A DNA stretch of 64,000 nucleotides, from contig NZ_CP013940.1 in assembly GCF_001277215.2 (NCBI RefSeq), positions 3,100,001 through 3,164,000 on the forward strand. The letters are read 5' to 3'. Source of the DNA: Cronobacter malonaticus LMG 23826. Lineage in GTDB: Bacteria > Pseudomonadota > Gammaproteobacteria > Enterobacterales > Enterobacteriaceae. The position numbers were made by a program, and so were the translations under genes. A model generated the notes under the pieces. It saw nothing but the letters and a program-made list of their open reading frames with translations, made no database searches and had not been told where the DNA came from. Of the stretch, positions 16,130-31,115 are shown in pieces. Numbering within the stretch: the first letter of the stretch is position 1; the number at the start of each line of letters is the position of its first letter.

Positions 16130-17107
16130 TTACGGCTGAGCCAGCGGCTTCACAAAACGATCGGTGACGAACGCGCGGTAATCCTGGCCAGCCTGCGGCA
16201 CTTTGCCCTGCGCTTTCAAAAACGCGGCGGTGTCGACAATCGCCTGATTCACCGGCCCGTTAAGCTGCTCCACCTGCTGGCGAGCGGTAAGGTAGGTATT
16301 GCCCTTCACCAGCCCCGGCACATCGCCCTGCGGCACGCCGCTTAAGCGCGCGAGCTTCTCCAGATGCTCCGGCTGTGTAAGCCAGCCGTCGGGGTTGTCG
16401 AGATAACCGCGCTGAGCCTCCAGCGCGCTGCGGGCAAAGGCGGTGACCACTTCCGGGTGTTTTTCGGCGAAGTCTTTACGCACCACCCAGACATCCAGCG
16501 TCGGCGAGCCCCATTTCCCCACTTCCGAGGAGTCGGTCAGCACCGTACCCTCTTTTTCCAGCGCGTTAACGGCTGGCGCCCAGACGTAAGCACCGTCGAT
16601 ATCGCCCCGCTGCCACGCGGCGATGATCGCCGGCGGCTGAAGGTTAACGATGCTCAGTTGATCCGGACGAATGCCCCAGTGTTTTAGGGCCGCCAGCAGG
16701 CTGTAGTGGGTGGTGGAGATAAACGGCACCGCGATGCGTTTGCCGATAAGATCCTGCGGCGTGCGAATCGATTTTTTCACCACCAGCGCCTCGGAGTTAC
16801 CAAGCTGCGAGGCGAGCAAAAACACTTCGATGGGGACATTCTGGCTTGCCGCGACGGCGAGCGGGCTGGAGCCGATGTTGCCTATCTGCACGTCGCCTGA
16901 GGCGAGCGCGCGCACGACGCTGGCGCCGCTATCGAATTTACGCCAGTCCACCGTGGCGCCGCTTTCTTTGGCAAAAGTGTTATCCGCCTGCGCCACTTTG
17001 GCGGGTTCGGCGGACGTCTGGTACGCGACGGTGACGTCCACCGCCTGTGCCTGAAATGCCCACAGCGCCAGCGCGCCGATGAGCGTAATACGCGATGTGA
17101 TTGCCAT
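16130..17107 (-). CDS. tauA: TauA, taurine-binding periplasmic protein
   Basis: The 325-residue substrate-binding protein has a Sec signal peptide (hydrophobic 8-20, cleavage after AQA near 22). The mature part is of the SsuA/THI5-like periplasmic-binding fold, opening VDVTVAYQTSAEPAKVAQAD. It delivers taurine to TauBC. As first gene of the operon it should carry the CysB/Cbl-dependent promoter upstream; no exact CysB site was recognised. The leader contains an 8-bp inverted repeat that covers the ribosome site. Confidence 0.95.
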   Translation of the reverse strand: MAITSRITLIGALALWAFQAQAVDVTVAYQTSAEPAKVAQADNTFAKESGATVDWRKFDSGASVVRALASGDVQIGNIGSSPLAVAASQNVPIEVFLLASQLGNSEALVVKKSIRTPQDLIGKRIAVPFISTTHYSLLAALKHWGIRPDQLSIVNLQPPAIIAAWQRGDIDGAYVWAPAVNALEKEGTVLTDSSEVGKWGSPTLDVWVVRKDFAEKHPEVVTAFARSALEAQRGYLDNPDGWLTQPEHLEKLARLSGVPQGDVPGLVKGNTYLTARQQVEQLNGPVNQAIVDTAAFLKAQGKVPQAGQDYRAFVTDRFVKPLAQP

Positions 17108-17112
17108 ACTGT

Positions 17113-17143
17113 CTGCCCCTGTAGTCTCTTGTTATAGGGGCAG
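17113..17143 (-). promoter_or_regulatory. Leader hairpin over the tauA ribosome-binding site
   Basis: CTGCCCCT (17113-17120) and AGGGGCAG (17136-17143) are perfect 8-bp inverted arms with a 15-nt loop. On the tauA mRNA the AGGGG arm is the likely Shine-Dalgarno sequence, ending about 8 nt before the ATG. Pairing would hide it, so it could tune translation; this is inference from structure only. Confidence 0.45.
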
Positions 17144-17274
17144 TATTTCCGGCGCGGGACGTCTGATAAAGGAATAAAAAAGCATCGCTAATGCCGAATC
17201 GTTTTTAGAAAAAAAACGGCAAAGGTTAGCGAATTTTGTGCGCTGGGAAGCGGTGCGTGAGTGAGGGTTGAGAT

Positions 17275-17299
17275 GCCGGGTGCGCTTCGCTTACCCGCC
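17275..17299. repeat. REP-like palindrome
   Basis: GCCGGGT and ACCCGCC arms around GCGCTTCGCTT, followed by CTACAA. It is the first of eight related palindromes between tauA and mmuM. Confidence 0.7.
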
Positions 17300-17326
17300 C
17301 TACAAATTACGTTACGCTAATCGTAG

Positions 17327-17351
17327 GGTGGGTAAGCGAAGCGCACCCACC
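17327..17351. repeat. REP-like palindrome, inverted relative to its neighbour
   Basis: GGTGGGT and ACCCACC arms around AAGCGAAGCGC. It lies 28 bp from the preceding copy in opposite orientation, so the pair could fold into a larger hairpin like a BIME. Confidence 0.7.
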
Positions 17352-17409
17352 GTTTTTTTTTCCGCCCGGGCGTTAATCGATTGGTAAGGTGAATGCTTTT
17401 ACTCCGGCT

Positions 17410-17438
17410 AAAAAAAATCGGCCCATAAGGGCCGATTT
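17410..17438 (-). terminator. Terminator-like hairpin of repeat unit 1
   Basis: AAATCGGCCC and GGGCCGATTT arms (10 bp, loop ATAA) are followed on the minus strand by eight Ts. Orientation matches transcription coming from mmuM. Confidence 0.75.
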
Positions 17439-17730
17439 CCGCCGGGAGCCGGGATTGCAAAGGGGGCGGCGGCGAGCCCCCTTTGCACGTTCGCGTGAGA
17501 GAAAAGCACAGAGGGAAATGACGTGATGGCGAACGGAACGATTTCACCGGCCTGTCATATGCGCCCAACTCCCTTCGCCTGTACCCTCTTCCCAACTGGC
17601 GGGTGCGCTTCGCTTACCCGCCCTACTATTCAGGCCATCCTCTGGTTAAAAAAACGGCGGATGCGGCTTCGCTCACCCGCCCTACATGTCAAAATAAATC
17701 AACGGTAATGGGCGTGGTTTTGCTCCGGCT

Positions 17731-17760
17731 AAAAAAAATCGGCCCATCAAGGGCCGATTT
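17731..17760 (-). terminator. Terminator-like hairpin of repeat unit 2
   Basis: Same 10-bp stem as unit 1 with loop ATCAA and an eight-base T-run on the minus strand. Confidence 0.75.
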
Positions 17761-18051
17761 CCGCCGGGAGCCGGGATTGCAAAGGGGGCGGCGGCGAGCC
17801 CCCTTTGCACGTTCGCGTGAGAGAAAAGCACAGAGAGAAATGACGTGACGGCGAACGGAACGATTTCACCGGCCTGTCATATGCACCCTGCTCTCTTCGC
17901 CTGCACCCTCTTCCCAACTGGCGGGTGCGCTTCGCTTACCCGCCCTACAATTCAGGTTATCCTCTGGTAAAAAAACGGCGGATGCGGCTTCGCTCACCCG
18001 TCCTACATGTCAAAATAAATCAGCGGTAACAGGCGTGGTTTTGCTCCGGCT

Positions 18052-18081
18052 AAAAAAAATCGGCCCATCAAGGGCCGATTT
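18052..18081 (-). terminator. Terminator-like hairpin of repeat unit 3
   Basis: Same stem and T-run as unit 2. It is the first strong terminator met by transcripts leaving mmuM, about 245 bp after its stop codon. Confidence 0.75.
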
Positions 18082-18292
18082 CCGCCGGGAGCCGGGATTG
18101 CAAAGGGGGCGGCGGCGAGCCCCCTTTGCACGTTCGCGTGAGAGAAAAGCACAGAGAGAAATGACGTGACGGCGAACGGAACGATTTCACCGGCCTGTCA
18201 TATGCGCCCTGCTCCCTTCACCTGCCCCCTCTTCCCAACTGGCGGGTCGCTTCGCTTACCCGCCCTACAAAATAGATACCCAGGTTATGTAG

Positions 18293-18317
18293 GCCGGGTA
18301 AGCGAAGCGCACCCGGC
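18293..18317. repeat. REP-like palindrome next to mmuM
   Basis: GCCGGGT and ACCCGGC arms around AAGCGAAGCGC form a perfect-armed hairpin 8 bp beyond the mmuM stop. It is the last copy of the series and may protect the mmuPM transcript end. Confidence 0.72.
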
Positions 18318-18324
18318 ATTCCCC

Positions 18325-19257
18325 TTAACGCTGCGTGCGCAGCGCCGCGATATCCGCAGGCGTGGTGCGACAACAGCCGCCAATCAGCGCCGCGCCCGCC
18401 GCGCGCCACTCATTCAGATAATGTGCCAGCGTCTGGCAGGCATGCCCGTCGTGACGCCAGGTTTTGCTCACCGCGTCATACTGCTCGCCGGAGTTCGGGT
18501 AAACCACCAGCGGCAGCCGGGTCGCGTCATGCAGACGCCCCAGCGCGGCGGTGGTTTTCTCCAGCGCCACGCAGTTAATGCCGAGCGCCGCAATCTGCGG
18601 ATACGGCGCGAGCGCGGCCGCCACATCACCAAGCGGCGTGCCGTCGCTGATATGGTCGCTGTCGCGAAGCGTAAAGGTAAACCACGCGCGCGCCTGCGGG
18701 TAGCTTTCCAGGAGCGCGGCGAGCGCCTGGGCTTCCGGCAGCGACGGCAGCGTTTCGCAGGCCAGCAGATCCACGCCCGCCTCAAGGAGCGCCTCCACGC
18801 GCGGGCGATGAAAATCTGCAAATTCCGCCGCGGAAAGCGCATAGTCGCCGCGGTATTCCGAGCCGTCCGCCAGATACGCGCCATACGGCCCGACGGAGCC
18901 TGCCACCAGCAGCGGCCCGGCATCCGGCTGTTCATGGTAATAATCGTCACGCGCCTGACGCGCCAGCTCAACGCTTCGCGCAATTAGCGCCCGCGACTGC
19001 GCCTCATCCAGCCCGCGCGCGGCAAAACCGGCTGGCGTCGCCTGGTAGCTGGCGGTAATGGCGCACTGCGCCCCGGCGCGGAAGTAATCAAGATGCACCG
19101 CGTAAATCAGCTCCGGCTGCTCCATGAGGACTTTCGCCGACCATAAGCTGTCGGCGAGATTACAGCCGCGCGCTTCCAGTTCGGTCGCGAGCGCGCCGTC
19201 CAGCACCACAAACGGCTGCTGGCTTAAGAGCGGGGTTAGCGGGTTATTCAGCGACAT
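18325..19257 (-). CDS. mmuM: MmuM, homocysteine S-methyltransferase
   Basis: The 310-residue zinc enzyme transfers a methyl group from S-methylmethionine (or S-adenosylmethionine) to homocysteine, giving methionine. Zinc ligands are the Cys in GINCVALE and the paired Cys in the C-terminal GGCCRTTP motif. The N-terminal [15 protein letters not shown] block is typical of the family. The start overlaps the mmuP stop by 14 bp, so the two are one operon. With MmuP it forms a salvage route for plant-derived S-methylmethionine, which suits a plant-associated enteric. Confidence 0.95.
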
Positions 19258-20644
19258 GGCGAGGCTCCTCGGTGCGGCGCGTGCGGAAAAATTGCGTCAG
19301 ATAATACGCGCCGTAGCAGAACGCCACAAACGGCAGCCCGCACCAGAGCGCGATGCGCTGGCCCGGATCGAACGCCAGCCCGACGCAGGCGATAAGACAA
19401 AGCGCGAAGCCCAGCACCGGCGTCAGCGGGTACCAGGGCGCGCGGTAATGTAATTCCTTGAGCGCCCGGCCTTCGGCCAGATGACGGCGGCGGAACATAA
19501 AATGCGCGGCGCAGATGCTGAGCCATACCGCCACCACCGCGAAACCGGAAATCGCCGAGAGCGCCACAAAGACGGTATCTGGCGCCACGATACTGGAAAA
19601 CAGCGCCAGCACGCCGCCCAGCATGCTTACCGACAGCGCTGTCAGCGGCACCCCGCGACGCGTGAGGCGCGAAAAACCGCGCGGCAGGGTGCGCTCATTG
19701 GCGAGCGACCAGAGCATCCGCCCCGAGGCGTACAGGCCCGAGTTGGCCGCGGACAAAATCGCGGTGAGGATCACGAAGTTAATGATATCGGCGGCGTAAG
19801 GAATGCCGATTTTCTCAAACACCAGCACGAACGGGCTTTTCACCACGCCCGCCTGATCCATCGGGATCAGCGCCGCCAGCACCAGCACGGTGCCGAGGAA
19901 GAAAATCACCAGCCGCACGATGGTGGTGCGAATCGCAACCGGCACCACCTGCTGCGGGTTTTCAGTCTCACCGGCCGCAATGCCGATAAGCTCGGTGCCG
20001 GAAAACGCGAAGTTAACCGCCACCATCGTCATCAGGATAGGCAGCGTCCCGGCGGGGAACCAGCCCGCGGCGGTCAGGTTGTGGAGCAGCGGCGCGGGCG
20101 AGCCATCTTTCATCGGCAGAATGCCGAACATCGCCGCCCCGCCCAGCATGATAAACGCCACGATGGTGATCACTTTAATAAGTGAAAACCAGAATTCGCC
20201 TTCGGCGAAAAGCCGCGTGGAGAAAACATTCAGCCCGAAAATCACCACGCAGAAGACCAGACACCAGATCCACACCGGCACCTGCGGAAACCAGTACTGC
20301 ATACAGAACCCGGCGGCGGTAAAGCTTGAGCCGAGCGCCACGGTCCAGGTGAGCCAGTAGAGCCACGCGACGGTATAGCCAGTCGCCGGGCCTAAATAGC
20401 GCGCCGCGTAGACGTGAAACGCGCCGGTCTCCGGCATGGCGACGGCCAGCTCGCCGAGGCACTGCATCACCAGCCAGACCACCAGCGCGCCGATAAGATA
20501 GGCCAGCAGCGTGCCCGCCGCCCCGGTCGTGGAAATAATATAGCCGGTATTAAAAAACAGCCCGGTGCCGATAACGCCCCCCAGCGAGAGCATCACCAGA
20601 TGACGGGCCTTCATGGTGCGTTGTAGCTGCTGCGATTCCTGCAT
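19244..20644 (-). CDS. mmuP: MmuP, S-methylmethionine permease
   Basis: The 466-residue amino-acid permease of the APC superfamily has about twelve hydrophobic segments. The conserved first-helix motif [15 protein letters not shown] (about residues 20-34) marks the substrate site. Similarity to E. coli MmuP and coupling to mmuM identify the substrate as S-methylmethionine. The ATG at 20644 gives [16 protein letters not shown] perfect MetJ half-operator lies 19-26 bp upstream of the start codon, implying methionine repression. Confidence 0.95.
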
Positions 20645-20654
20645 AAACCCTTCT

Positions 20655-20678
20655 ATACGTTCAGACGTCTAAACATCC
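20655..20678 (-). promoter_or_regulatory. MetJ operator (met box) of mmuPM
   Basis: AGACGTCT at 20663-20670 is the exact consensus met box. The flanking 8-mers ATACGTTC and AAACATCC are weaker partial boxes, consistent with two or more tandem MetJ sites. MetJ represses methionine genes when S-adenosylmethionine is plentiful, which fits a methionine salvage operon. Confidence 0.75.
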
Positions 20679-20926
20679 ATAACTGAACGTTATACCGGGA
20701 AGCGATGCGAAATGCAAAAGCCGTCACGCGCTCAGCTACTTACCCGCAACTGCCCGCGTCTGATTATTCACCGCATACATACTTCGCAACACCCTTCGCT
20801 GGCAAAGCCAGGGGTCGGTTACTACCTTTAAGTCACTATAACGAGAGCGCCTCCCCGCGGAGAAGCCGCTCTTCTTCGCTGCGGCACACGTTCGCGGCAC
20901 TGGCAAGGCACGTTTGAGGAAGCACT

Positions 20927-23899
20927 ATGCAAGAGTCGCTCTGTACCCTGTTTTATGACGGGAGGCCGCTGACTGGCCCGGCGAATATCCCGCTTATCGA
21001 TTTTCTGACGGCCTGCGATGTCAAGCTCCCGCACGTCTGTTACCACCCCGCGCTTGAGCCGATGCAAACCTGCGATGTCTGCTGGGTGGAGTATCAGGGC
21101 GAGCTGGTGCGCGGCTGTACGCTGAAAAGCGCGCAGGGCATGGAAATTGCCAGCCGCACGCCCGACGCGCAGGCGGCGCAACACGAAGGCATGGACAGGC
21201 TGCTCGCCAAACATGAACTTTACTGTACCGTCTGCGAACACAATACCGGCGACTGCACCCTGCATAATGCCGTGGCGGATATGCATATTCCGATTCAGCG
21301 CTACGAATACCAGCGCAAACCCTACGTTAAAGATCACTCCAACCCGTTTTACACCTACGATCCCGACCAGTGCATTCTGTGCGGGCGCTGCGTGGAGGCG
21401 TGCCAGAACGTCGAGGTCAACGAGACGCTGAGCATCGATTACACCATGGCCCACCCGCGTGTGCTGTGGGACGGCGGCGAGACTATCGCCGGCTCCAGCT
21501 GCGTGAGCTGTGGGCATTGCGTCACCGTCTGTCCCTGCAACGCCCTGCTTGAGAAAACCATGCAGCCGGACGCCGGGCCGTTTACCAGCATGAAGCAGAC
21601 GCTCAAGCGCCCGATGATAGATCTGGTGAAAGCCATCGAAAACACCACGGGTGCTGAGATCATTACCGGGATTTCGGTGATGGACATGCACTGGCGGCAG
21701 CCGGAAATTAAACGTACCAAAACGGTCTGCACCTACTGCGGCGTCGGGTGCAGCTTTGAAATCTGGACGCGCGACCGCCACGTGCTGAAAGTGCAGCCGG
21801 TCGCCGACGCGCCTGCCAACGGCATCTCCACCTGCGTGAAGGGCAAATTCGCCTGGGATTTCCTCAACGATAAAGCACGCCTCACCACACCGCTTATCCG
21901 CGAGAACGACCGCTTCCGCGAGGCGAGCTGGGACGAGGCTCTGGCGCTGGTGGCGCGCCGCCTGCTGGCGATCCGCGATCAGTTCGGGCCGCAGGCCATC
22001 GGTTTTATCGGCTCCAGTAAGGGCAGCAACGAAGAAGCCTACCTGACGCAGAAAATCGCGCGCCTCATTATTGGCACCAACAGCGTTGATAACTCGTCAC
22101 GCTACTGCCAGAACCCGGCCACCAAAGGGCTGTTCCGCACCGTCGGTTATGGCGGCGACGCGGGTACCATTGAAGATCTGCATAAAGCGTCGCTGATTGT
22201 GATTGTCGGCAGCAACACCGCGGAGAACCATCCGGTGATCGCCGCGCGCATGAAAGCCGCGAAAAAACATCACGGGCAGCAACTGCTGGTAGTCGACCCG
22301 CGCCGTCACGAAATGGCCGAACGCGCCGACCGTTACCTGCGCATTCGCCCCGGCACCGATATGGTCTGGGCCTCGGCGATGGCGCGCTATATGTTTGACC
22401 ACGGCTACGCCGACGAGGCGTTTCTCGCCGCGCACGTCAACCAGGTGGACGAATACCGCCAGTCGCTCGCGCCGTTCACGCTGGAGTTCGCCGCCGACAT
22501 TACCGGGCTTACGGTAGAGGAGCTGACCGCCGCCGCCGAGCTTATCGGCAACGCGCCGTCCGTCTGCATCGTCTGGGCGATGGGCGTCACCCAGCACAGC
22601 CACGGCGCGGACACCAGCACCGCGCTCTCCAACCTGTTGCTGGTCACCGGCAACTACGGTCGCCCTGGCACAGGTGGCTACCCGATGCGCGGACATAATA
22701 ACGTGCAGGGCGCGAGCGATTTCGGCTGCCTGAAAAACTACTACCCCGGCTATGAATCGGTGAGCGATGAAACCGTGCGCGCCAAATGGGCGAAAGCCTG
22801 GGGCGTGGAACCGGAAAAACTGTCGCTGGAGGCAGGCTCAGATAACTTCGAGATGGTAGAGCACGCGCGCACGAAACAGGTTCGCGCCATGTATGTCATC
22901 GGCGAAGAGACGGCGTTTTCCGATGCTGACAGCGCTAACGTGCACGAGGGCTTTACCGATCTCGATTTCCTGGTGGTGCAGGATCTCTTTTTAAGCCGCA
23001 CCGCGCAGTTCGCCGATGTGGTGCTGCCCGCCTGCCCGAGCATCGAAAAAGACGGCACGTTCGTGAATACCGAGCGGCGCATTCAGCGCTTTTATGAAGC
23101 CATGCCGCCGCTCGGCGACAGCCGCCCGGACTGGCGCATTCTGACCGAGCTTGCCGCGCGCATGGGTCACGACTGGGGCTACACGCACCCGTCACAAATC
23201 ATGGCGGAGGCAGCGAGTATCGCCACGCTATTCGCGGGCGTCAGCTATGAGCGTCTTGAAGGCTGGAACTCCCAGCTCTGGCCGGTGAAGCCTGACGGCG
23301 AAAGCACGCCGCTGCTCTACACCGACGGGTTTAATTTCCCGGATGGCCGCGCCGTGCTCTACCCGCTGAAGTGGCAGCCGCCCGCCGAAGCGCCGGATGA
23401 CGAATACGATCTGGCGCTCAATAACGGGCGCATGCTGGAGCATTTCCAGTCGACCAACCAGAGCGGACGCGGCGGGCGCACAATGTCGCTGTCGCCCGAC
23501 TGGTTTGTAGAGATTAGCCCGCAGCTTGCCGCTGAGCGTGGGCTTTTAGAGGGCGACTGGGTGAAACTCACCTCGCGACGCAGCTCGCTGGAGGTGCCGG
23601 TGGTCATCACCGATCGCGTGGCGGGCACGTCGCTTTTTATCTCTATTCATCAGGGCAAACCGGGCATTAACGCGCTCACCGGCGAGCACCACGACCCCGA
23701 CGTCAACACGCCGGCGTATAAGGAGCTCGCGGTAAAACTGGAGAAACTCTCCCGCGCGCCGCACCCGTCGCCGCTGCCGCGGCATAACTTCCGCTATGGT
23801 GCCCGCACGCCGATGGCGGGCGTGCCGGTCGAAGAGAAATGGCAGCGTGACGATTACCGCCTGCCGCCCGAACAGGAACCTCACCCGGAGAAATTTTAA
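20927..23899 (+). CDS. Molybdenum formate dehydrogenase, catalytic subunit with N-terminal Fe-S domains
   Basis: The 990-residue protein starts with a [2Fe-2S] ferredoxin domain (Cys38, 49, 52, 64) and a His-Cys3 cluster (His96, Cys100, 103, 110). Two [4Fe-4S] sites follow (Cys149/152/155/159 and Cys192/195/198/202), then the bis-MGD oxidoreductase region with its own [4Fe-4S] (Cys268, 271, 275, 303). The molybdenum ligand is a cysteine, Cys394 in SSRYCQNPATKG, so no selenocysteine is needed. The layout resembles YjgC/YrhE (ForC) of Bacillus rather than E. coli FdhF, FdnG or FdoG. No NADH module or classical membrane subunit follows; instead a DUF1641 gene overlaps its stop by 1 bp. Formate oxidation is inferred from family. 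Confidence 0.88.
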   Translation: MQESLCTLFYDGRPLTGPANIPLIDFLTACDVKLPHVCYHPALEPMQTCDVCWVEYQGELVRGCTLKSAQGMEIASRTPDAQAAQHEGMDRLLAKHELYCTVCEHNTGDCTLHNAVADMHIPIQRYEYQRKPYVKDHSNPFYTYDPDQCILCGRCVEACQNVEVNETLSIDYTMAHPRVLWDGGETIAGSSCVSCGHCVTVCPCNALLEKTMQPDAGPFTSMKQTLKRPMIDLVKAIENTTGAEIITGISVMDMHWRQPEIKRTKTVCTYCGVGCSFEIWTRDRHVLKVQPVADAPANGISTCVKGKFAWDFLNDKARLTTPLIRENDRFREASWDEALALVARRLLAIRDQFGPQAIGFIGSSKGSNEEAYLTQKIARLIIGTNSVDNSSRYCQNPATKGLFRTVGYGGDAGTIEDLHKASLIVIVGSNTAENHPVIAARMKAAKKHHGQQLLVVDPRRHEMAERADRYLRIRPGTDMVWASAMARYMFDHGYADEAFLAAHVNQVDEYRQSLAPFTLEFAADITGLTVEELTAAAELIGNAPSVCIVWAMGVTQHSHGADTSTALSNLLLVTGNYGRPGTGGYPMRGHNNVQGASDFGCLKNYYPGYESVSDETVRAKWAKAWGVEPEKLSLEAGSDNFEMVEHARTKQVRAMYVIGEETAFSDADSANVHEGFTDLDFLVVQDLFLSRTAQFADVVLPACPSIEKDGTFVNTERRIQRFYEAMPPLGDSRPDWRILTELAARMGHDWGYTHPSQIMAEAASIATLFAGVSYERLEGWNSQLWPVKPDGESTPLLYTDGFNFPDGRAVLYPLKWQPPAEAPDDEYDLALNNGRMLEHFQSTNQSGRGGRTMSLSPDWFVEISPQLAAERGLLEGDWVKLTSRRSSLEVPVVITDRVAGTSLFISIHQGKPGINALTGEHHDPDVNTPAYKELAVKLEKLSRAPHPSPLPRHNFRYGARTPMAGVPVEEKWQRDDYRLPPEQEPHPEKF

Positions 23900-24387
23900 T
23901 GTCCAAAGCGATTGACTATCAGCCCGAGCCGCCACGCATCGGCCCGACGGCAGACGAAGAGCTGCAACGCCTGCTCCAGACGCTGCATGAACATGGTGTA
24001 CTGCGCCTGACCAACGATCTGGTGGCGTCCAACAACGAGTGGATCAAGGTCATCATCGACGGCCTGAGCCGCAAAGGTTCGCTGAACGTTATCCAGAATA
24101 TCTCTGTGCTGCTGATGGCGCTCTCCACCATTCCGCCGGAGCGGATGTATAAACTCGCCTTCGGCGTGCGCGATTTCGCCGCGGAACTGAGCCGCGAAGA
24201 GGCGCGCCCTGAAAGCGAACAGGCCGACGCGCCGGGCGTGCGCGGGGCATGGAAAATGCTGCATGACGATGAGCTGTGGCGCTCGCTGACGCCGCTCCTG
24301 AACGGTCTGAAAGCGTTCTCCCGCCGCATGGAAGAGGAGGTAGACAAACCCATCTCATCCTTTACCGGCAAGCCGAGCGACGCCTGA
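23899..24387 (+). CDS. DUF1641 protein, probable partner of the formate dehydrogenase
   Basis: The 162-residue DUF1641 protein contains the family core around LVASNNEWIKVIIDGLSRKG and NISVLLMALSTIPPERMYKL (about residues 40-85). In Bacillus the equivalent YjgD/YrhD (ForE) proteins have been reported as partners of ForC that link it to menaquinone. The same pairing here suggests this is the quinone-reducing or membrane-tethering subunit. There is no transmembrane helix, only amphipathic stretches. Its start overlaps the dehydrogenase stop (TAATG) and cydA begins 2 bp after its end, so all are translated together. Confidence 0.82.
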   Translation: MSKAIDYQPEPPRIGPTADEELQRLLQTLHEHGVLRLTNDLVASNNEWIKVIIDGLSRKGSLNVIQNISVLLMALSTIPPERMYKLAFGVRDFAAELSREEARPESEQADAPGVRGAWKMLHDDELWRSLTPLLNGLKAFSRRMEEEVDKPISSFTGKPSDA

Positions 24388-24389
24388 TA

Positions 24390-25802
24390 ATGATTAGCCC
24401 GGAAACCGCGCTGCTTTTGGCGCGCAGTCAGTTCGCCTTCACCATCGGGTTTCACATCGTGCTGGCGGCGCTGACGATAGGCCTCGCGCAGTGGCTGATG
24501 CTGCTGGAAGGTTTGTGGCTGTGGCGCAGGCAGCAAATTTATCTCGATCTCTATAAATACTGGAGCAAGATCTTTGCGCTGAACGTCGCGGTCGGCGTCG
24601 TCACCGGCGTATTGATGGAATTCCAGTTCGGCGCGAACTGGGGCGAGCTTTCCAGCCGCGCCGGGGCGGTGATGGGGCCGCTGATGTACATGGAAGTGCT
24701 GGTGGCGTTTTTCCTTGAAGCGGGATTTATGGGCGTGGTGCTGTTCGGCATGGGCAAAGTGCGCCCGTGGGTGCATTTTCTCGCCACCTGCGTGGTAGCG
24801 GCAGGCTCGCTGTTCAGCGCCTTCTGGATATTGTCGGCGAACTCGTGGATGCAGACGCCCGCGGGCTTCATCACCGGACCGGATGGCCGCTTTCACCCCG
24901 TTGACTGGTGGGCGGTGATTTTCAACCCGTCCTTTCCATACCGGCTGGTACATATGTCCATCGCCGCGCTGCTCGCCACCGCGTGCCTGGTGGCGGCGGT
25001 TGGCGCGTGGCACCTGCTCAAACGCCCGAAGCAGCCGGGCGCGCGGCGGATGTTCTCCTGGGGCTTATGGATGTTGCTCGCGCTCGCGCCCCTTCAGGCC
25101 GTAGTGGGCGATCTGCATGGCGAAAACACCCGTGACCACCAGCCGGTCAAACTGGCGGCGATGGAAGGCAGCTGGAACCCGCCGCCGCCCGGCGAAGGCG
25201 AGCCGCTGCGGATGTTCGCGATCCCGGATATGGAGGCGCGGCGCAACCACTTTGAAGTGGCGATCCCGTCCGTCGGCTCGCTCTATCTGCGCCATAACCT
25301 CACCGGCACCATTCACAGCCTGAATCAATATCCGCCGGACGAACTGCCCTGGGTGCCCGGCGTCTTCTTCGCGTTTCGCGCCATGGTCGGGCTCGGCTTT
25401 CTGATGATTTTTGTTGGCGTCGCCGGGCTGGTGGTGCGGCTGCGTGGCCGGTTGTGGGAGGCACGCTGGCTGCAGCGCGGCATGGTGGCAATGGCACCGG
25501 CGGGGGTTATCGCGATGCTCGCGGGCTGGGTCGTCACCGAAACGGGCCGCCAGCCGTGGACCGTCTACGGGCAGTTGCTGACCCGCGAGAGCGCCTCGCC
25601 CATCGCGCCGTCGCTGGTGCTCGGCTCGTTTGTCGCGATTGTGGTGGTCTATCTGCTGGTTTTCGCACTCGGTATAGGATTTATGCTGCGCCTGCTCGCG
25701 AAACCACCGGGCGACGACACGCCGGATGCCAACCCGTCCGTGGCAGCGCAAACCGGCAGCGGCGTGACGCCGCACAGCCTGCGGGGGCATTCAGATGACT
25801 GA
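24390..25802 (+). CDS. Cytochrome bd ubiquinol oxidase subunit I (CydA/CioA type)
   Basis: The 470-residue membrane protein has about nine helices. Features of subunit I are the heme-ligand region SQFAFTIGFHIVLAALTIG near the N-terminus, the LMEFQFGANW segment, the ETGRQPWTVYGQL motif and the quinol-loop GDLHGENTRDHQPVK region. The Q-loop looks short, as in cyanide-insensitive (Cio-type) oxidases rather than E. coli CydAB. It oxidises quinol and reduces oxygen to water. The start at 24390 lies 2 bp past the DUF1641 stop, and the 3' end overlaps subunit II by 8 bp. Confidence 0.9.
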   Translation: MISPETALLLARSQFAFTIGFHIVLAALTIGLAQWLMLLEGLWLWRRQQIYLDLYKYWSKIFALNVAVGVVTGVLMEFQFGANWGELSSRAGAVMGPLMYMEVLVAFFLEAGFMGVVLFGMGKVRPWVHFLATCVVAAGSLFSAFWILSANSWMQTPAGFITGPDGRFHPVDWWAVIFNPSFPYRLVHMSIAALLATACLVAAVGAWHLLKRPKQPGARRMFSWGLWMLLALAPLQAVVGDLHGENTRDHQPVKLAAMEGSWNPPPPGEGEPLRMFAIPDMEARRNHFEVAIPSVGSLYLRHNLTGTIHSLNQYPPDELPWVPGVFFAFRAMVGLGFLMIFVGVAGLVVRLRGRLWEARWLQRGMVAMAPAGVIAMLAGWVVTETGRQPWTVYGQLLTRESASPIAPSLVLGSFVAIVVVYLLVFALGIGFMLRLLAKPPGDDTPDANPSVAAQTGSGVTPHSLRGHSDD

Positions 25803-26802
25803 ACTACTGCTTTCTCTGCCGCTGTTAACGCTGCTTTGCGCCGGGGCGCTCGCCGCGGGCGTGCTGATTTACGTACTGCTTGATGGCGCAGATCTTGGCG
25901 TGGGGCTGCTGGCCCCGTTTCAGTCGCCGCAGGCGCGCCAGCAGATGAATATTTCGCTGCTGCCGGTCTGGGACGGCAACGAAACCTGGCTGGTGCTGAC
26001 CGCCGGCGCGCTACTGGCGATGTTTCCCGTCGCCTTCAGCATTCTCTACAGCGCGCTCTACCTGCCGGTCTATCTCATGCTGCTGGCGATGATTGTGCGC
26101 GGGGTGGCGATTGAGTACCGCCACCTGCGCCCGCGGCTGTTCGACGCGCTGTTTATCGCAGGCTCCTGGCTGACGTCGTTAAGCCAGGGCGCGACGATGG
26201 GCGCGTGGGTTGAAGGCATTACCCATAACGGCGCGACATTTACCGGCGGCGCGATGGACTGGCTGTCGCCCTTTTCGGTCTTCTGCGCGATAGCGCTCAG
26301 CGTCGGCTATGCGCTGCTGGGCGCGTGCTGGGTTATCTGGCGCTGCGAAGGGGAACTTAACGCCTGGGCGCGGCGTCAGGCCATATGGCTTGCCATTCTC
26401 ACCGCCGCGCTGCTGGCCGGGCTGCTGGTCTGGACGGTGCAGCTTAATGAGACCTACCGGCTGCACCTGCAACTGTGGCGCTGGAGCGGGCCGCTGGTGG
26501 CGGTGGGCTTGCTGGCGTTTTCGGGCGTAATACTGACGCTGCGCCAGCGGCGCGATTTCCTGCCGCTCGCGATGACGCTTTTGCTGTTTATCGCCGCGTT
26601 CGGCGCGATGCTGCTGGCCGTTTTTCCGTTTATTCTGCCGCCGAATCTGTTGCTTATTCAGGCCGCCGCGCCGCCCGCCACGCAGAAGCTGATGCTTATC
26701 GCTTTTGGCGTCTTTGTGCCCATTACGCTTATTTATAACAGCTGGGGATTCTGGGTGTTTCGCGGCAAGATCCACGCCGCGCGGGAAGATGACCGCCCCT
26801 GA
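25795..26802 (+). CDS. Cytochrome bd ubiquinol oxidase subunit II (CydB/CioB type)
   Basis: The 335-residue membrane protein has about eight hydrophobic segments and the family motifs YVLLDGADLGVGLL and VWDGNETWLVLTAGALLAMF near the N-terminus. It pairs with subunit I to build the bd oxidase. Its start overlaps subunit I (ATGACTGA), so stoichiometric synthesis is likely. No CydX-like small protein was found just downstream; only an 11-codon stretch exists there. This ends the four-gene formate dehydrogenase-oxidase operon. Confidence 0.9.
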   Translation: MTELLLSLPLLTLLCAGALAAGVLIYVLLDGADLGVGLLAPFQSPQARQQMNISLLPVWDGNETWLVLTAGALLAMFPVAFSILYSALYLPVYLMLLAMIVRGVAIEYRHLRPRLFDALFIAGSWLTSLSQGATMGAWVEGITHNGATFTGGAMDWLSPFSVFCAIALSVGYALLGACWVIWRCEGELNAWARRQAIWLAILTAALLAGLLVWTVQLNETYRLHLQLWRWSGPLVAVGLLAFSGVILTLRQRRDFLPLAMTLLLFIAAFGAMLLAVFPFILPPNLLLIQAAAPPATQKLMLIAFGVFVPITLIYNSWGFWVFRGKIHAAREDDRP

Positions 26803-27065
26803 AGCATGATGCGGGTGCCATCTCTGTACGGCCATAAATAAGAAAAAGAATAACAGGAAGCATTAATTAGAATTGTCGCGGCGAACAAAAGAAGTGAATA
26901 TTCACTCTGGTTGATTTTAATAAACAGCGAAAAAGAAAAGATTTTAAGGATGTAAAAGAGGCGTATTATTCGCGGCGGGTGCCTGAGGCTTTCTGGTTTC
27001 AGGCATTATGCTGGTTCTGGAAAGATGAAGGCCCCGAGTTAATTACCTTAACCCGAGGCCGACAC

Positions 27066-27128
27066 ATGAACCCGAACAGTTCATATGTTAGCCTCTTACT
27101 CGCCTTTCGGCAAGGAGAATGGCTATGA
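27066..27128 (+). CDS. mok-like leader peptide
   Basis: This is a 20-codon frame from ATG 27066 (MNPNSSYVSLLLAFRQGEWL) whose TGA overlaps the hok-like ATG at 27125. In hok systems translation of the overlapping mok frame is required for toxin translation, and Sok blocks it. Position and overlap fit that role; the peptide itself has no expected function. Confidence 0.6.
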   Translation: MNPNSSYVSLLLAFRQGEWL

Positions 27129-27277
27129 AGGACAATACTTTTATCGGGTGAATTATTATTGTTTGTGTGACGGTAATAATGTTCACCATCCTTTCACGGG
27201 AAACGCTTTGCGAGCTGCGCTTGCGGGGCGCGGGTATGGAGATTGTCGCTTCACTGGCTTGTAAACCCAGAGAGTAA
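27125..27277 (+). pseudogene. Hok/Gef family toxin with in-frame TGA at codon 9
   Basis: A 50-codon frame from ATG 27125 to TAA 27275 aligns without gaps to E. coli HokA (50 residues). After TGA at codon 9 (27149-27151) comes IIIVCVTVIMFTILS, a membrane span, then RETLCELRLR and LACKPRE, with the family's conserved Cys and CEL motif. A ribosome site (CAAGGAG) lies upstream. The TGA could derive from TGG or TCA by one change and should stop synthesis after eight residues. The rest of the frame has no other damage, suggesting recent inactivation or a sequencing error. Confidence 0.75.
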
Positions 27278-27371
27278 GCGTCTGACGCGGGGAGCAATCC
27301 CCGCGATTTGACTGGCGGATTTATGCCTTCAGGCACCCTTATTTATTATTTACCGGCACATATCAATTATA

Positions 27372-28400
27372 TTAACCCGTAACAGGATCTTGTAGTACCC
27401 GCAATTTCGCCAGACGGCTGGCGGTGCGCCCAATATCATCCAGCGCGACGCCATCAGTAATTTCCGCTACCGAATACGCGCTCGAAACAAATAACTTTCG
27501 CTGCTTATCATAGAGCACATCAATAAGATTAATAAACCGCTGCGCCGCCGCCGGGCTGACGCGTGAAAGCCTCGGCACGTCATCAATAAACCAGCAGGAA
27601 AAGGTTTCGCACAGCGTTAAATAATCCATGACCGCCGTCGGCGCTTCACATATTCCCGCAAAGGTGAAATGCAGTACATGTCCCGGTGGTGACGCGGCAT
27701 AAAAGGTGTGATAACCGGCCGTGACCACGAACTCACCGTGCGCCACTGCAAGCCCGAGCGCGTCACGCTGTGCAGGCGTGCCGGGCCGCAGCCACGCGCC
27801 TTCGCTGAACAGCCCGGCGTCGCTGCCCGCCTCAAGGCGGTAATCGCGCTCGCCGTTGAGGGCGAAAATCGTCATTTCACGCTCGATAAGCGCGATGGAA
27901 GGCACAAACAGCTCATGATAAAGCGGGTGTGAAAGCAGCTCGCGCGGCGAGTAGTTGGAAGTCAGGATCAGCGTGATATTCAGCGCCTGCGCCACCTCTA
28001 ACAGCTTTTTCGCAAGCATCGCATCGCCCGGATCGTGCAGGTGGAATTCGTCAAAGCAGAGCAACCGCGCGTCGCCTAACTGCGCGCGCAGCGCCTGCTC
28101 CAGCGGTTTATCCACCATGCGCTGATGCAGTTCGCGAAAGAAGTCATGAAAGTGGGCGCGCTTTTTCGCCGGGAGCGGCAGCGAGGAGAAAAAGTTATCG
28201 ACAATAAAGCTTTTGCCGCGCCCCGGCCTGCCCCAGACATACAGCCCGGCGAAGCGCGCGCGTCCCGCCAGCAGCGACGCGGCGAGGCTCTCAAGCGCGC
28301 TGATAAGCCGCGTCTGGTCTGCATCAAGGCGCAGCGCTTTTTGCTGCGCCAGCCGTTGCATGGTTTCGTGAAACGAAAAGGGGGCGGCGATCCCGGCCAT
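27372..28400 (-). CDS. ZapE/AFG1-like ATPase
   Basis: The 342-residue AAA-type P-loop protein has Walker A GRPGRGKS and Walker B LLCFDEFHLHD, with SNYSPRELL as the sensor region. These are hallmarks of the AFG1/ZapE family, in which E. coli ZapE (375 residues) acts in cell division. The typical C-terminal block YDKQRKLFVSSAY is also present. ATG 28400 was chosen because GGAG lies 9 bp upstream; a TTG eight codons earlier has no site. This gene is next to lpxP and is probably a second family member rather than zapE itself, which in E. coli lies near rplM. The role is therefore uncertain. Confidence 0.8.
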   Translation of the reverse strand: MAGIAAPFSFHETMQRLAQQKALRLDADQTRLISALESLAASLLAGRARFAGLYVWGRPGRGKSFIVDNFFSSLPLPAKKRAHFHDFFRELHQRMVDKPLEQALRAQLGDARLLCFDEFHLHDPGDAMLAKKLLEVAQALNITLILTSNYSPRELLSHPLYHELFVPSIALIEREMTIFALNGERDYRLEAGSDAGLFSEGAWLRPGTPAQRDALGLAVAHGEFVVTAGYHTFYAASPPGHVLHFTFAGICEAPTAVMDYLTLCETFSCWFIDDVPRLSRVSPAAAQRFINLIDVLYDKQRKLFVSSAYSVAEITDGVALDDIGRTASRLAKLRVLQDPVTG

Positions 28401-28494
28401 CGCGGCAGCTCCATATGTAAACAAAATGTTATTAACACATACTTAGCGTGTTTTTTCAAAAGCCGCCGCACGATCTCTCAAAGAGACGCAAAAA

Positions 28495-28519
28495 AAAGCC
28501 CCGCACTGAGCGGGGCTTT
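28495..28519 (-). terminator. Terminator of lpxP
   Basis: A perfect 10-bp stem (AAAGCCCCGC and GCGGGGCTTT, loop of 5) is followed on the minus strand by a T-run. It lies 16 bp after the lpxP stop and separates lpxP from the ATPase gene. Confidence 0.9.
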
Positions 28520-28534
28520 CTGTAAAAACGCGTA

Positions 28535-29458
28535 TCAGGTATAGAGTGACGCTTCGCCCGCCGGGCGGGTTTTGAATCGGCGGTGTATCCAGAGATACTG
28601 CTCCGGCGCGCGCAGGATTTCGCGCTCAATCACTTTGTTCATGTAGCACGCCGCGGCGGCTTCATCTTCACGCGGGTAGCCCTGCAGCTCCGGCTGGATA
28701 ATCAGCTTATAGCCGCTGGCATCGGGGTTGCGAATCATCACAATGGTCAGCATCGCCGCGTTGCTCAGGCGCGAGAGCACATACGTTCCGCGCGTGGTGG
28801 CGGCGTCGTTTACCGCAAACAGCGGCGCAAAGGTGCTGCCGCGTGGGCCGTAATCCTGGTCCGGCGCAAACCAGACCGCTTCGCCCTGCTTCAGCGCGTT
28901 GACCATGCCTTTGAGATCTTTACGGTCGATCATCGCTTTGTTAGAGCGCATACGCCCTTTGGTCTGCGCCCACTCCATCGCTTTGTTGTTGTGCGGACGG
29001 TACATCGCCATCATCGGCTTGCACAGGCCCATCACACGCCCGCCAAGCTCCAGCGACATAAAGTGCACGCCAATCACGATCACGCCACGCTGCTGCGCGC
29101 TCGCCTGATGCAAATGGTGCAACCCTTCGACGTTAAACCATTTTTTAATACGCGCGTCTGACCAGAACCAGGCCATGCCGGTTTCCAGCAGCGCCATGCC
29201 GAGCGACAGGAAGTTTTCCTGAATCAGTTGCTCTTTTTGCGGCTCGCTAAAATTCGGGAAGCAGAGTTCCAGGTTACGGCGCAGGATTTTCTCACGGCGC
29301 TTCAGGAAGCGGCGTGAATTGCGGCCGAGGAACGCGCCGAGGCGCATCAGAAGCGGGTGCGGCATCTGCACCAGCAACCACAGCAGGCCGAGACCAAACC
29401 AGGTAAACCAATAGCGCGGGTGCAGCAGCGCCCGGGAAAAAGGCATGACGTTATTCAT
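28535..29458 (-). CDS. lpxP: LpxP, palmitoleoyl acyltransferase of lipid A
   Basis: The 307-residue late acyltransferase has the HX4E catalytic motif in GVHFMSLELGGRVMGLC (His near residue 132). This stretch and APEQYLWIHRRFKTRP match E. coli LpxP better than LpxL. LpxP adds palmitoleate to Kdo2-lipid IVA at low temperature in place of laurate, keeping the outer membrane fluid. One N-terminal hydrophobic segment anchors it in the inner membrane. It is transcribed alone, with a terminator just downstream and a long AT-rich region upstream that could host cold regulation. Confidence 0.92.
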   Translation of the reverse strand: MNNVMPFSRALLHPRYWFTWFGLGLLWLLVQMPHPLLMRLGAFLGRNSRRFLKRREKILRRNLELCFPNFSEPQKEQLIQENFLSLGMALLETGMAWFWSDARIKKWFNVEGLHHLHQASAQQRGVIVIGVHFMSLELGGRVMGLCKPMMAMYRPHNNKAMEWAQTKGRMRSNKAMIDRKDLKGMVNALKQGEAVWFAPDQDYGPRGSTFAPLFAVNDAATTRGTYVLSRLSNAAMLTIVMIRNPDASGYKLIIQPELQGYPREDEAAAACYMNKVIEREILRAPEQYLWIHRRFKTRPAGEASLYT

Positions 29459-30074
29459 AAAGCCCCTCTATGCACAGAAATGTATCGCATAAAGAAGCCG
29501 TTCCGTAAGCGGTACAAACCAGACAGAAAATCATTCAGCAGGGATACAACCTTCCTGCTACGTAATAATACCGGAGAAAAAAATAAACCGGCACCGTTAA
29601 CGCGCCCGTTTTTAATTACAGTCATGTCAGAGTGTGAATAAAAAGCACGCTTTTTATCGACCCTGAAACATTCCGTCGTATTAACCGACACTTTTTGACA
29701 ACATGCGCGACACAGCGCCGTCGTTAAATCACTTAACCCGCTAATGATAACAACCTTAATTAACAGAAACTTGATCCGGCCTTCAGGTTTTTCTGCGGCT
29801 GGAATCTCGCATCGCCCTGTATTTAAAAGCCTTCTTTAACAGAATGAAGAAACACAATGCAGAAATAATCTGGCTGAATTTTCTACGGCGATGACGCTAA
29901 GCGTCAGAGTGAGGCTTTTGCGCGCGGAAAGATAGCGTAATTTTGTAAAGAATGCGATGGAATTATGGAGGAAGGTAAAAAAAAACTTTTTAGGATTATT
30001 ACTGTCGCTATTTACTTTTTAAGCGAAATATTCCTTACCGCCGGGCATTATTTCCCGGCGTCTGTTTATCATCA
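29459..30074. other. Long AT-rich intergenic region upstream of lpxP
   Basis: There are 616 bp without a convincing gene. It contains the lpxP promoter on the minus strand and the 3' flank of the small membrane gene. A hairpin with 7-bp GC arms (CGCCGGG 30039-30045, CCCGGCG 30054-30060) lies 15 bp after the small gene's stop but has no T-run. Open frames here lack ribosome sites and family resemblance. Nothing else was recognised. Confidence 0.5.
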
Positions 30075-30242
30075 TTAAAAATAGTGTTTTAAGCCGTAAA
30101 TCGCCCAGTAAATCGCCGAAGCGCCCAGATAAATCCAGCAGCCCCAGTAAGCCAGCGGCTCGCGGTCGCTTTTCGCTCTCGGCAAAAAGGCGAAAAGATA
30201 ACTGGCCGCCGCGATTAACGAAATAAAATAGAAAAACTTCAT
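30075..30242 (-). CDS. 55-residue two-helix membrane protein
   Basis: ATG 30242 follows a near-perfect Shine-Dalgarno sequence (AGGAGGGG, 4 bp away), strongly supporting translation. The product begins MKFFYFISLIAAASYLFAFL, then has a short charged loop (PRAKSDREP) and a second hydrophobic stretch rich in Trp and Tyr ending GLKHYF. Two transmembrane segments in a hairpin are predicted. I do not recognise the family. It is monocistronic, about 120 bp from the convergently placed end of the DeoR-type gene. Many such small enteric membrane proteins are stress-induced. Confidence 0.7.
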   Translation of the reverse strand: MKFFYFISLIAAASYLFAFLPRAKSDREPLAYWGCWIYLGASAIYWAIYGLKHYF

Positions 30243-30359
30243 ACTGCCCCTCCTGAAATTATCCGCATAACCGTTTTCAGACGCGCTTATTCACAGGATA
30301 GACAGCGTTAGCAGATTATGCGCGGTTTCCGTCCGGTTCGTTCTGGTGCCGCCGGCAGG

Positions 30360-31115
30360 CTACGCCCTGACAACCGTCACGCCCCGGGCTTCGAAAGGCG
30401 TGAGCAGACTCTCGGCGGTATCGCCCTCGACAACCAGCGTGTTCACCAGCGACATATCGCCAATACAAAACGCGGAAGCGGCGTTGAGCTTTTCACGCGA
30501 GGCCATCACCACCGTTTCTGCAGCGCGCGAGGCCAGCGCGCGTTTGACGCACGCCTCTTCGTAATCGCCGGTGCTGAGGCCCGCATCGGCATGCACGCCG
30601 GTGACACCCAAAAAGAACAGGTCGGCGCGCAGATGGCTCATGGCTTCGATGGCCGCCGCGCCCACCGAGACGATCGAATGTTTAAACAGCCGCCCGCCGA
30701 TCAGGATCACCTCAATGCGCAGATGCTCCACCAGCTGTAGCGCGATGCCCGGGCTGTGAGTGATCACCGTAATGGCGAGATCCGAAGGCAGACATTTCAC
30801 CAGTTCGCCGGTCGTGGTGCCGCCGTCGAGCATCACGATCTGCCCCGGTTCGATCAGCGCGGCGGCGCGGCGCGCGACCGCCCGCTTGGAGTCGATGGAG
30901 AGCTGGCTGCGCCCGGCGTAATCCGCCACGGCCGCCGAAGCGGGCAGCGCCCCGCCGTGGACGCGTTGCAGGCGGCCTTCGGCGGAGAGTTCCCGCAGAT
31001 CGCGCCGGATCGTATCTTCGGAGACGTTAAACCACTCGCTGAGCGCGCGGGACTGCACCTGCCCTTCCGCCGCCAGCTTTTCCAGAATGAGCTTCTTACG
31101 TTGTGACGTCAGCAT
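30360..31115 (-). CDS. DeoR-family transcriptional regulator
   Basis: The 251-residue protein has the DeoR/GlpR layout. The N-terminal winged helix has the signature around VQSRALSEWFNVSEDTIRRD and HGGA (about residues 18-55). The sensor domain follows, with LDGGTTTGEL, ILIGGRLF and FLGVTGVHADAGLST motifs for binding a phosphorylated sugar. ATG 31115 is preceded by AGGAAA; an earlier GTG-type start would cover the regulatory region. It is divergent from the nudK-like/DUF4406 operon, and TGCACG boxes between them are probable operators. The effector is unknown. Confidence 0.88.
   Translation of the reverse strand: MLTSQRKKLILEKLAAEGQVQSRALSEWFNVSEDTIRRDLRELSAEGRLQRVHGGALPASAAVADYAGRSQLSIDSKRAVARRAAALIEPGQIVMLDGGTTTGELVKCLPSDLAITVITHSPGIALQLVEHLRIEVILIGGRLFKHSIVSVGAAAIEAMSHLRADLFFLGVTGVHADAGLSTGDYEEACVKRALASRAAETVVMASREKLNAASAFCIGDMSLVNTLVVEGDTAESLLTPFEARGVTVVRA

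What the first reader, a model, noticed from the sequence alone, without database searches (positions are those of the whole stretch)
20927..26802. Operon joining formate dehydrogenase, DUF1641 protein and cytochrome bd oxidase
Four genes overlap or sit within 2 bp of each other: a Cys-type molybdenum formate dehydrogenase with four extra Fe-S domains, a DUF1641 protein and both bd oxidase subunits (Cio-like, apparently short Q-loop). There is no NADH module, cytochrome b subunit or hydrogenase gene. In Bacillus, DUF1641 partners are reported to connect this dehydrogenase type to quinone. The operon would therefore encode a complete formate:quinone:oxygen chain, possibly one supercomplex, in an enteric that may also have other formate dehydrogenases. 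I know of no description of this exact arrangement in enterics.
Basis: partly seen in the sequence, partly recalled or inferred. Interest (0 to 1): 0.75.

Follow-up and report, generated by a model that had tools for sequence, protein, structure and literature searches.

The report
Formate-to-oxygen respiration operon
Four tightly packed genes appear to encode a compact respiratory chain that takes electrons from formate to oxygen, pairing a recently described kind of formate dehydrogenase with what looks like its own dedicated oxidase; each part is of a known kind, but I found no description of the pairing.

Summary
At 20927-26802 (+) a Cronobacter-like chromosome carries four genes that overlap or lie 2 bp apart: a formate dehydrogenase closest to Bacillus subtilis ForC1 (CQ/RGH motif); a ForE relative that fails the Pfam DUF1641 model but whose family profile finds the solved ForE1; and CydA/CydB of a short-Q-loop bd quinol oxidase with the checked residues kept. 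ForCE itself is known. What looks new is a ForCE-tied oxidase. In 80 named relatives ForC precedes ForE in all 80, and bd follows directly in 33. Most linked CydA proteins form a clade separate from the generic CIO paralogue. Among 392 family genomes this clade occurs in 32 and ForE in 33, together in 30 (26 adjacent, 4 unlinked). Of 12 ForCE genomes without an adjacent oxidase, 10 keep it elsewhere. Exceptions exist both ways, and many ForCE loci have no bd. Four Halomonadaceae loci carry a different CydA beside ForCE, perhaps a second origin (AU p = 0.06-0.22, undecided). Best reading: a cytoplasmic formate:quinone:O2 chain coupled through the quinone pool. Nothing supports or excludes a physical supercomplex. 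No activity data exist. New variant of a known kind.

The parts
20927..23899 (+). forC-like catalytic subunit: Cys-type molybdopterin formate dehydrogenase, N-terminal 2Fe-2S and 4Fe-4S sites, CQ/RGH active-site motif
   Evidence: NCBIfam Fdh-alpha; best solved relative B. subtilis YjgC/ForC1 (8rqz_C, 9gzq_A; 1235 bits), next other protein 558 bits; residue alignment; motifs
23899..24387 (+). forE-like partner subunit (NCBI names many relatives DUF1641), no transmembrane segment
   Evidence: family profile matches PDB ForE1 8rqz_A E=3.1e-7; Deinococcus ForC neighbour at hhalign probability 97%; hydropathy maximum 1.41; PF07849 itself not matched
24390..25802 (+). cydA: bd quinol oxidase subunit I, short Q-loop, ForCE-associated clade
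   Evidence: Pfam Cyt_bd_oxida_I; residue check; trees
25795..26802 (+). cydB: bd quinol oxidase subunit II
   Evidence: Pfam Cyt_bd_oxida_II; below the NCBIfam cydB cut-off (103.2 against 117.3 bits)
20822..20855 (+). conserved element about 105 bp upstream of forC (CTACCTTTAA followed by ATAAC), possible promoter or regulator site; function not known
   Evidence: upstream alignments; pattern upstream of 13 of 85 forC genes, background 0.0025 per 400 bp; the hits are in related Enterobacterales loci, so not independent

Best explanation
The operon encodes a cytoplasm-facing formate oxidase chain. ForC oxidises cytoplasmic formate at a Cys-ligated Mo site and passes electrons along its Fe-S clusters. 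ForE completes the quinone-reducing site on ForC and lets the soluble complex reach the membrane. The quinol formed is reoxidised by a partner bd oxidase (CydAB), which reduces O2 to water and moves charge across the membrane. The net reaction, formate + H+ + 1/2 O2 to CO2 + H2O, would remove formic acid from the cytoplasm, bypass NADH and complex I, and still build some proton-motive force. The two halves are most likely coupled through the quinone pool, not as one fixed complex. Probable setting: aerobic or microaerobic removal of formate under stress or in stationary phase. Shown here: sequence kinship of the parts, gene order, conserved residues, purifying selection, co-inheritance. Inferred: formate:quinone activity in this organism, use of ubiquinone (Pseudomonas and Halomonas relatives are, from general knowledge, ubiquinone-only), electron coupling, physiological role.
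For: ForC 1235 bits to ForC1. CQ in 96 of 97 ForC sequences of 700 aa or more, some from the same genome taken twice; RGH in 97 of 97. The exception, L061, reads CK in a broken gene. ForE profile hits ForE1. B. subtilis ForCE1/2 are formate:menaquinone oxidoreductases in which ForE is needed for the quinone step (PMC8808070, abstract and Discussion; Chem Rev PMC13397495, passages). CydA keeps H19, E99, E107, H186, K252, E257, R391, M393, W441, E445 and R448 in 38 of 38 clade members and 4 of 4 Halomonadaceae members (E. coli numbering and roles recalled). In 80 named loci a ForC match lies directly upstream of ForE in all 80, with a 1-nt overlap in 76; bd follows in 33, one of them (L034) seen only as the start of cydA at a contig end, and 2 loci end too soon to tell. 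In 392 family genomes: clade oxidase in 32, ForE in 33, both in 30, of which 26 adjacent. In 12 ForCE genomes without an adjacent oxidase, 10 keep the clade oxidase, the query's own genome among them. 0 of 30 CydA rows from ForE-less genomes fall in the clade, against 35 linked rows and 3 unlinked rows from ForE-bearing genomes.
Against: No activity, expression or interaction data. Two genomes of one genus (G730, G785) have the clade oxidase without a detected ForE, and a Paraburkholderia oxidase next to the clade in the tree has no ForCE within 13 kb. Several ForCE genomes lack the oxidase (G704; G541 and G543). ForCE without an adjacent bd is common: 45 of the 78 informative loci, 23 of them Halomonadaceae, and no bd is annotated within 3.5 kb in 4 of 4 non-proteobacterial records viewed. 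So bd is not needed for ForCE in general. Genomes are related, so the co-occurrence count (Fisher p about 4e-39) overstates independence. ForE is remote from characterised ForE.
Confidence: 0.72

Rival explanations
1. Linkage reflects a shared stress island rather than electron transfer between the two enzymes: ForCE feeds the general quinone pool and CydAB is a stress oxidase (ROS, NO or cyanide resistant) that merely shares regulation.
For: Mn-catalase, DUF892, SDR or Zn-ADH family genes lie within up to 9 kb of ForCE in 26 of 88 loci (family names tested on one representative each), and unlinked clade oxidases in Chimaeribacter sit near ORFs that look like Mn-catalase and DUF892 (by eye). 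B. subtilis forCE1 is in the SigB stress regulon (PMC8808070). The clade oxidase without ForE in G730/G785 lies within about 5 kb of a DUF892-like ORF.
Against: No background rate was computed for those neighbours. The four genes overlap or nearly abut in most linked loci, while the other stress genes vary in position and strand. The oxidase clade tracks ForCE far better than generic CIO does.
Confidence: 0.2
2. ForCE and CydAB form a physical formate:oxygen oxidoreductase supercomplex with channelled quinol, ForE docking on CydAB.
For: Tight overlaps suggest co-translation; clade-specific CydA on a long stem branch (0.55, 0.9).
Against: No interaction test could be run. B. subtilis ForCE was purified as a two-subunit enzyme. 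In Chimaeribacter and Pantoea the genes are unlinked and yet both kept in 10 of 12 genomes. The ForE tail (P151, G157, K158) is conserved in loci with and without bd.
Confidence: 0.12
3. Ordinary neighbourhood accident or hitch-hiking of an extra CIO oxidase next to a ForCE pair, spread by horizontal transfer.
For: The cassette sits on plasmids in Pantoea and Rahnella and with varied neighbours elsewhere.
Against: Order kept while ForE falls to 41% and CydB to 33% identity in the main group (26-28% in Salinicola); co-retention after unlinking in 10 of 12; a different CydA next to ForCE in Halomonadaceae; purifying selection.
Confidence: 0.04

Closest known systems
Bacillus subtilis ForCE1/ForCE2 (YjgCD, YrhED), formate:menaquinone oxidoreductase; PMC8808070, PDB 8rqz
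   Same: Catalytic subunit with CQ/RGH motif and four N-terminal Fe-S sites, small ForE partner encoded next to it, no transmembrane helix or haem subunit
   Different: No oxidase gene is described with it in the passages read; window ForE is a remote relative that Pfam DUF1641 misses; the quinone is probably ubiquinone or a mixed pool here (inference)
Cyanide-insensitive oxidase CIO / short-Q-loop cytochrome bd (CioAB type)
   Same: Short Q-loop, CydA/CydB pair, checked residues kept; the same genome has a generic paralogue at about 50% CydA identity
   Different: Window CydA belongs to a separate clade found mostly with ForCE; the genes are embedded in the forCE operon
E. coli FDH-N / FDH-O (FdnGHI, FdoGHI)
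   Same: Formate to quinone, as respiratory electron entry (from general knowledge)
   Different: Those have a Tat signal, Sec, a haem b membrane subunit and a ferredoxin-like subunit (general knowledge); none in this operon. The same genome has a catalytic subunit of that look elsewhere
NAD-linked FdsABG of Cupriavidus/Rhodobacter
   Same: FdsA-like domain layout of the catalytic subunit (PMC8808070; PDB 6tg9)
   Different: No NADH module or FdsD seen beside it; CQ instead of CH motif

Membership tests
ForCE formate:quinone oxidoreductase | ForC-type catalytic subunit with CQ and RGH motifs | tested here: met
ForCE formate:quinone oxidoreductase | N-terminal extension with 2Fe-2S and 4Fe-4S sites | tested here: met
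   Pfam matches, motifs, aligned cysteines
ForCE formate:quinone oxidoreductase | Adjacent ForE homologue | tested here: met
   profile to 8rqz_A ForE1 E=3.1e-7; Deinococcus 97% and Priestia 72% hhalign probability
Pfam DUF1641 (PF07849) | Match to the Pfam model | tested here: not met
   no match in the window protein or its genome; 3 of 16 aligned sequences match at E<=1, best 0.0019
ForCE formate:quinone oxidoreductase | No transmembrane segment in either subunit | tested here: met
   hydropathy maxima 1.41 (ForE) and 1.36 (ForC) over 19 residues; no signal peptide seen by eye
ForCE formate:quinone oxidoreductase | Formate-dependent quinone reduction | not testable with these tools
   needs biochemistry
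cytochrome bd quinol oxidase | Haem ligands, quinol-site and conserved acidic residues | tested here: met
   twelve positions against the same genome's 522-aa CydA; residue roles recalled
cytochrome bd quinol oxidase | CydB partner | tested here: met
   PF02322 E=1.5e-75; NCBIfam cydB below cut-off
cytochrome bd quinol oxidase | Small CydX/CydS-type subunit | tested here: inconclusive
   no convincing small co-directional ORF after cydB among ORFs of 20 aa or more (judged by eye)
CIO (CioAB) subgroup | Short Q-loop | tested here: met
   71 against 134 residues
CIO (CioAB) subgroup | Cyanide-insensitive respiration | not testable with these tools
   needs biochemistry
FDH-N/FDH-O | Haem b membrane subunit, Sec active site, Tat signal | tested here: not met
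   Cys active site; no such neighbour gene among ORFs listed at 17000-31000 (by eye)

The most novel reading that the evidence does not exclude
ForE has become an adaptor that holds the cytoplasmic formate dehydrogenase against its own bd oxidase, giving a self-contained formate:O2 oxidoreductase that channels quinol without mixing with the bulk pool. On this reading bd oxidases were recruited to ForCE twice, once in the Enterobacterales/Pseudomonas line and once in Halomonadaceae from their own CIO.
Probability: 0.14. Interest if true: 0.82.

Novelty: new variant of a known kind. Interest (0 to 1): 0.57.

Why it matters
ForCE enzymes were characterised only recently, and what oxidises the quinol they make, and why aerobes carry them, is open as far as I know. 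A dedicated oxidase that follows ForCE on plasmid and chromosome, in most cases even when the genes separate, points to aerobic cytoplasmic formate oxidation as the answer in some Gammaproteobacteria and makes it directly testable. It would also be an unusual case of a bd oxidase subfamily tied to one electron donor, and a four-gene cassette that could be moved as a unit into laboratory strains for C1 bioenergetics.

Tried and rejected
Rejected: an enteric-only arrangement (Pseudomonas and Halomonadaceae loci); a chance neighbour. No near match (megablast, roughly 85% identity or more) in 20,395 E. coli records. One against two origins of linkage was not settled: AU p=0.221 on CydA (88 rows) and p=0.062 on CydA+CydB (87 rows). 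Eleven long-branched rows of 99 were dropped before both tests, and L113 before the second because no CydB was recovered for it. The ForE structure prediction came back poor (mean pLDDT 59.4, pTM 0.34, all-helical), so no fold search was run on it. The sigma-70 promoter scan found no site upstream of the operon on its strand (1 site in the region against 2.3 in shuffles). Ten paper searches listed no paper that I recognised as describing a ForCE-bd operon; listings show title and start of abstract only, and the library is open-access only. Read: PMC8808070 outline and abstract, Discussion section and found passages; PMC13397495 and PMC6208408 found passages only; the other papers as listings. 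In the ForC tree 83 of 87 loci were used: L069 and L073 were left out because the contig ends after ForE, L070 and L100 because ForC is cut. L106 was labelled unlinked through a start-codon miscall and corrected. Neighbour families were counted without a background control.
Full report
Where it is. The window lies on contig C1 (4.29 Mb) of a 4.47 Mb, 3-contig genome. The first 20 kb of a second contig match Cronobacter malonaticus and C. sakazakii plasmids at 96.5% and 94.9%, so the genome is Cronobacter or very near it.

What the genes are. The catalytic protein is an Fdh-alpha equivalog. Among solved structures its best match is B. subtilis YjgC/ForC1 (1235 bits; the next other protein 558 bits), and the alignment runs over residues 22-982 with the cysteine motifs, YCQ and RGH in register. 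The 162-aa protein fails Pfam DUF1641, and only 3 of 16 aligned sequences touch that model at E<=1. The profile of those 16 finds ForE1 (8rqz_A, 8rr0, 9gzq) at E=3.1e-7, and a 23-member profile finds the Deinococcus neighbour of ForC at 97% probability and the Priestia one at 72%. ForE membership is therefore supported though remote. CydA and CydB match their Pfam families. All twelve CydA positions checked are kept in the window protein and, apart from one gap at position 9, in 38 clade members.

Its place in the genome. Three bd-type CydA genes exist: a long one of the classical length, a generic short CIO-like one at about 50% identity, and this one. Eleven molybdopterin-family matches were found. 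By active-site motif two are TGA-containing formate dehydrogenases (FdhF-like and FdnG/FdoG-like, naming from recall) and one is a Cys type; others are a BisC/TorA-family protein, NarG and NuoG. One FdhD was found. Other formate dehydrogenases thus exist in the cell, and this operon would add a cytoplasm-facing route to quinone.

How widely the arrangement occurs. It is uncommon: ForE was found in 5 of 369 genomes sampled across the class, the window's own included, and the four others are remote and show no CydA match in the flanks read. A one-per-species scan gave 80 named loci, the best 80 of 109. A ForC match lies directly upstream of ForE in all 80, with a 1-nt overlap in 76, 20 nt apart in one, and not measured in 3 where ForC is broken or cut. 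A bd pair follows in 33 of 80, one seen only as the start of cydA at a contig end (L034); two loci end too soon to tell (L069, L073). By NCBI family the 33 are Enterobacteriaceae 14, Erwiniaceae 9, Pseudomonadaceae 5, Halomonadaceae 4 and one unplaced. The distance from forE to cydA is an 8-nt overlap in 11 loci and otherwise -1 to 196 nt where measured. The 45 without bd include 23 Halomonadaceae and 9 Erwiniaceae. On plasmids, 77 records hold ForE, 67 of them Pantoea. The 18 plasmid records whose CydA is at least 60% identical to the Pantoea anthophila clade oxidase all have a DUF1641 or hypothetical gene named under the match. Four non-proteobacterial ForCE records viewed with 3.5 kb flanks have fdhD, a transporter, molybdate or Moco genes or hxlAB nearby, and no annotated bd (that gene table is incomplete).

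A ForCE-tied oxidase clade. In a quick tree of 99 short-type CydA proteins, 38 form one supported group: 35 linked to ForCE and 3 unlinked but from ForCE-bearing genomes. None of the 30 rows from ForE-less genomes fall in it. The other 27 rows from ForE-bearing genomes are generic CIO types outside it. Four Halomonadaceae linked CydA (three species) group with Halomonadaceae generic CIO instead (support 96), suggesting a second capture. A single origin is not excluded (AU p=0.221 on CydA; 0.062 on CydA+CydB). On the ForC tree, linkage needs at least 5 changes against 28.0 for shuffled labels (83 rows).

Co-occurrence. In 392 genomes of the family, the listed CydA hits to the Pantoea clade protein fall into two sets with a gap: 32 genomes at 51-71%, then 48% or less (the list is cut at its weak end, and at most four candidates per genome were scored). 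ForE is found in 33. The overlap is 30; 26 are adjacent, and the 4 unlinked belong to one genus, the one that holds Chimaeribacter. ForE without the oxidase: G028 (broken cassette), G594 (same coordinates as the contig-end Pseudescherichia locus L034, where the start of cydA is visible) and G704. Oxidase without ForE: G730 and G785, one genus, inside the clade by tree for both (L310, L311), with no ForC or ForE match within the 14 kb read. Neither: 357. The Fisher value ignores relatedness. In an earlier sample of 149 family genomes the ten full-length CydA hits of 57% or more to the window protein all lie in ForE-bearing genomes. In 12 ForCE genomes without an adjacent oxidase, 10 have it elsewhere: 7 Pantoea at 87-100% to the query, whose own genome is one of the 7, and 3 Chimaeribacter at 51-53%. 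For one of these (L073) the ForE contig ends early, and the separation is read from the oxidase's own surroundings (L224). G541 and G543 lack it.

Mechanism. B. subtilis ForCE enzymes reduce a menaquinone analogue, bind menaquinone and need ForE for it (PMC8808070, abstract and Discussion); a 2026 review describes the ForCE hetero-octamer, lipid at the interface and possible transient membrane contact (PMC13397495, passages). With a quinol oxidase encoded in the same operon, the simplest chain is formate to ForC to quinone at the ForC/ForE interface to CydAB to O2. Pseudomonas and Halomonas relatives would need ubiquinone (general knowledge), so the quinone site probably differs from the Bacillus one. 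A stress setting is suggested by SigB control of forCE1 in Bacillus and by Mn-catalase, DUF892, SDR or Zn-ADH genes within up to 9 kb in 26 of 88 loci, without a background rate; in 7 Pantoea loci a GFA-family (formaldehyde-activating) gene lies just downstream of ForCE on the other strand. These are leads only.

What is not shown. No transcript, activity, quinone type or physical contact has been measured. The ForE model was too poor to use. Ten searches of an open-access library listed no description of the four-gene operon, which does not prove there is none.

Verdict. A real, conserved operon; its parts are of known kinds; the combination and the ForCE-tied oxidase clade are a new variant worth testing.

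Noticed in passing
window 26977-27277 (+): A sok antitoxin RNA (Rfam RF01794, 104 bits) lies just downstream of cydB with a hok-like frame that carries an in-frame stop (family recognised by eye): a probably decayed type I toxin-antitoxin locus.
   Followed up: partly
L323 3524-8417 (Paraburkholderia caribensis plasmid): A CydAB pair whose CydA is 61% identical to the window's and lies next to the ForCE-linked clade in the tree sits divergently beside a molybdo-oxidoreductase (FdhF/YdeP-like, naming from recall), with no ForCE in 13 kb: possibly another molybdoenzyme-oxidase pairing.
   Followed up: partly
L031 7968-8450 (Burkholderia multivorans plasmid): A ForE-like gene without ForC within 8 kb, about 3 kb from a generic CydAB pair and near gluconate-dehydrogenase-like genes.
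   Followed up: partly
   Followed up: no
L310 and L311 (G730, G785): ForCE-type oxidase clade present without a detected ForCE, near DUF892-like, SDR-like and alpha-amylase-like ORFs (names from recall).
   Followed up: partly
window 20822-20855: Conserved CTACCTTTAA...ATAAC element about 105 bp upstream of forC in Cronobacter, Franconibacter and Kosakonia-type loci; regulator unknown.
   Followed up: partly
L018 (CP060162, labelled Acinetobacter venetianus): The 343-kb plasmid carries a cassette like that of a Pantoea eucrina plasmid and the same replicon cluster, so the host label or assembly may be mixed.
   Followed up: no
   Followed up: no
L061 (Vreelandella lionensis): ForC is broken into two frames and has CK where the others have CQ.
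   Followed up: no
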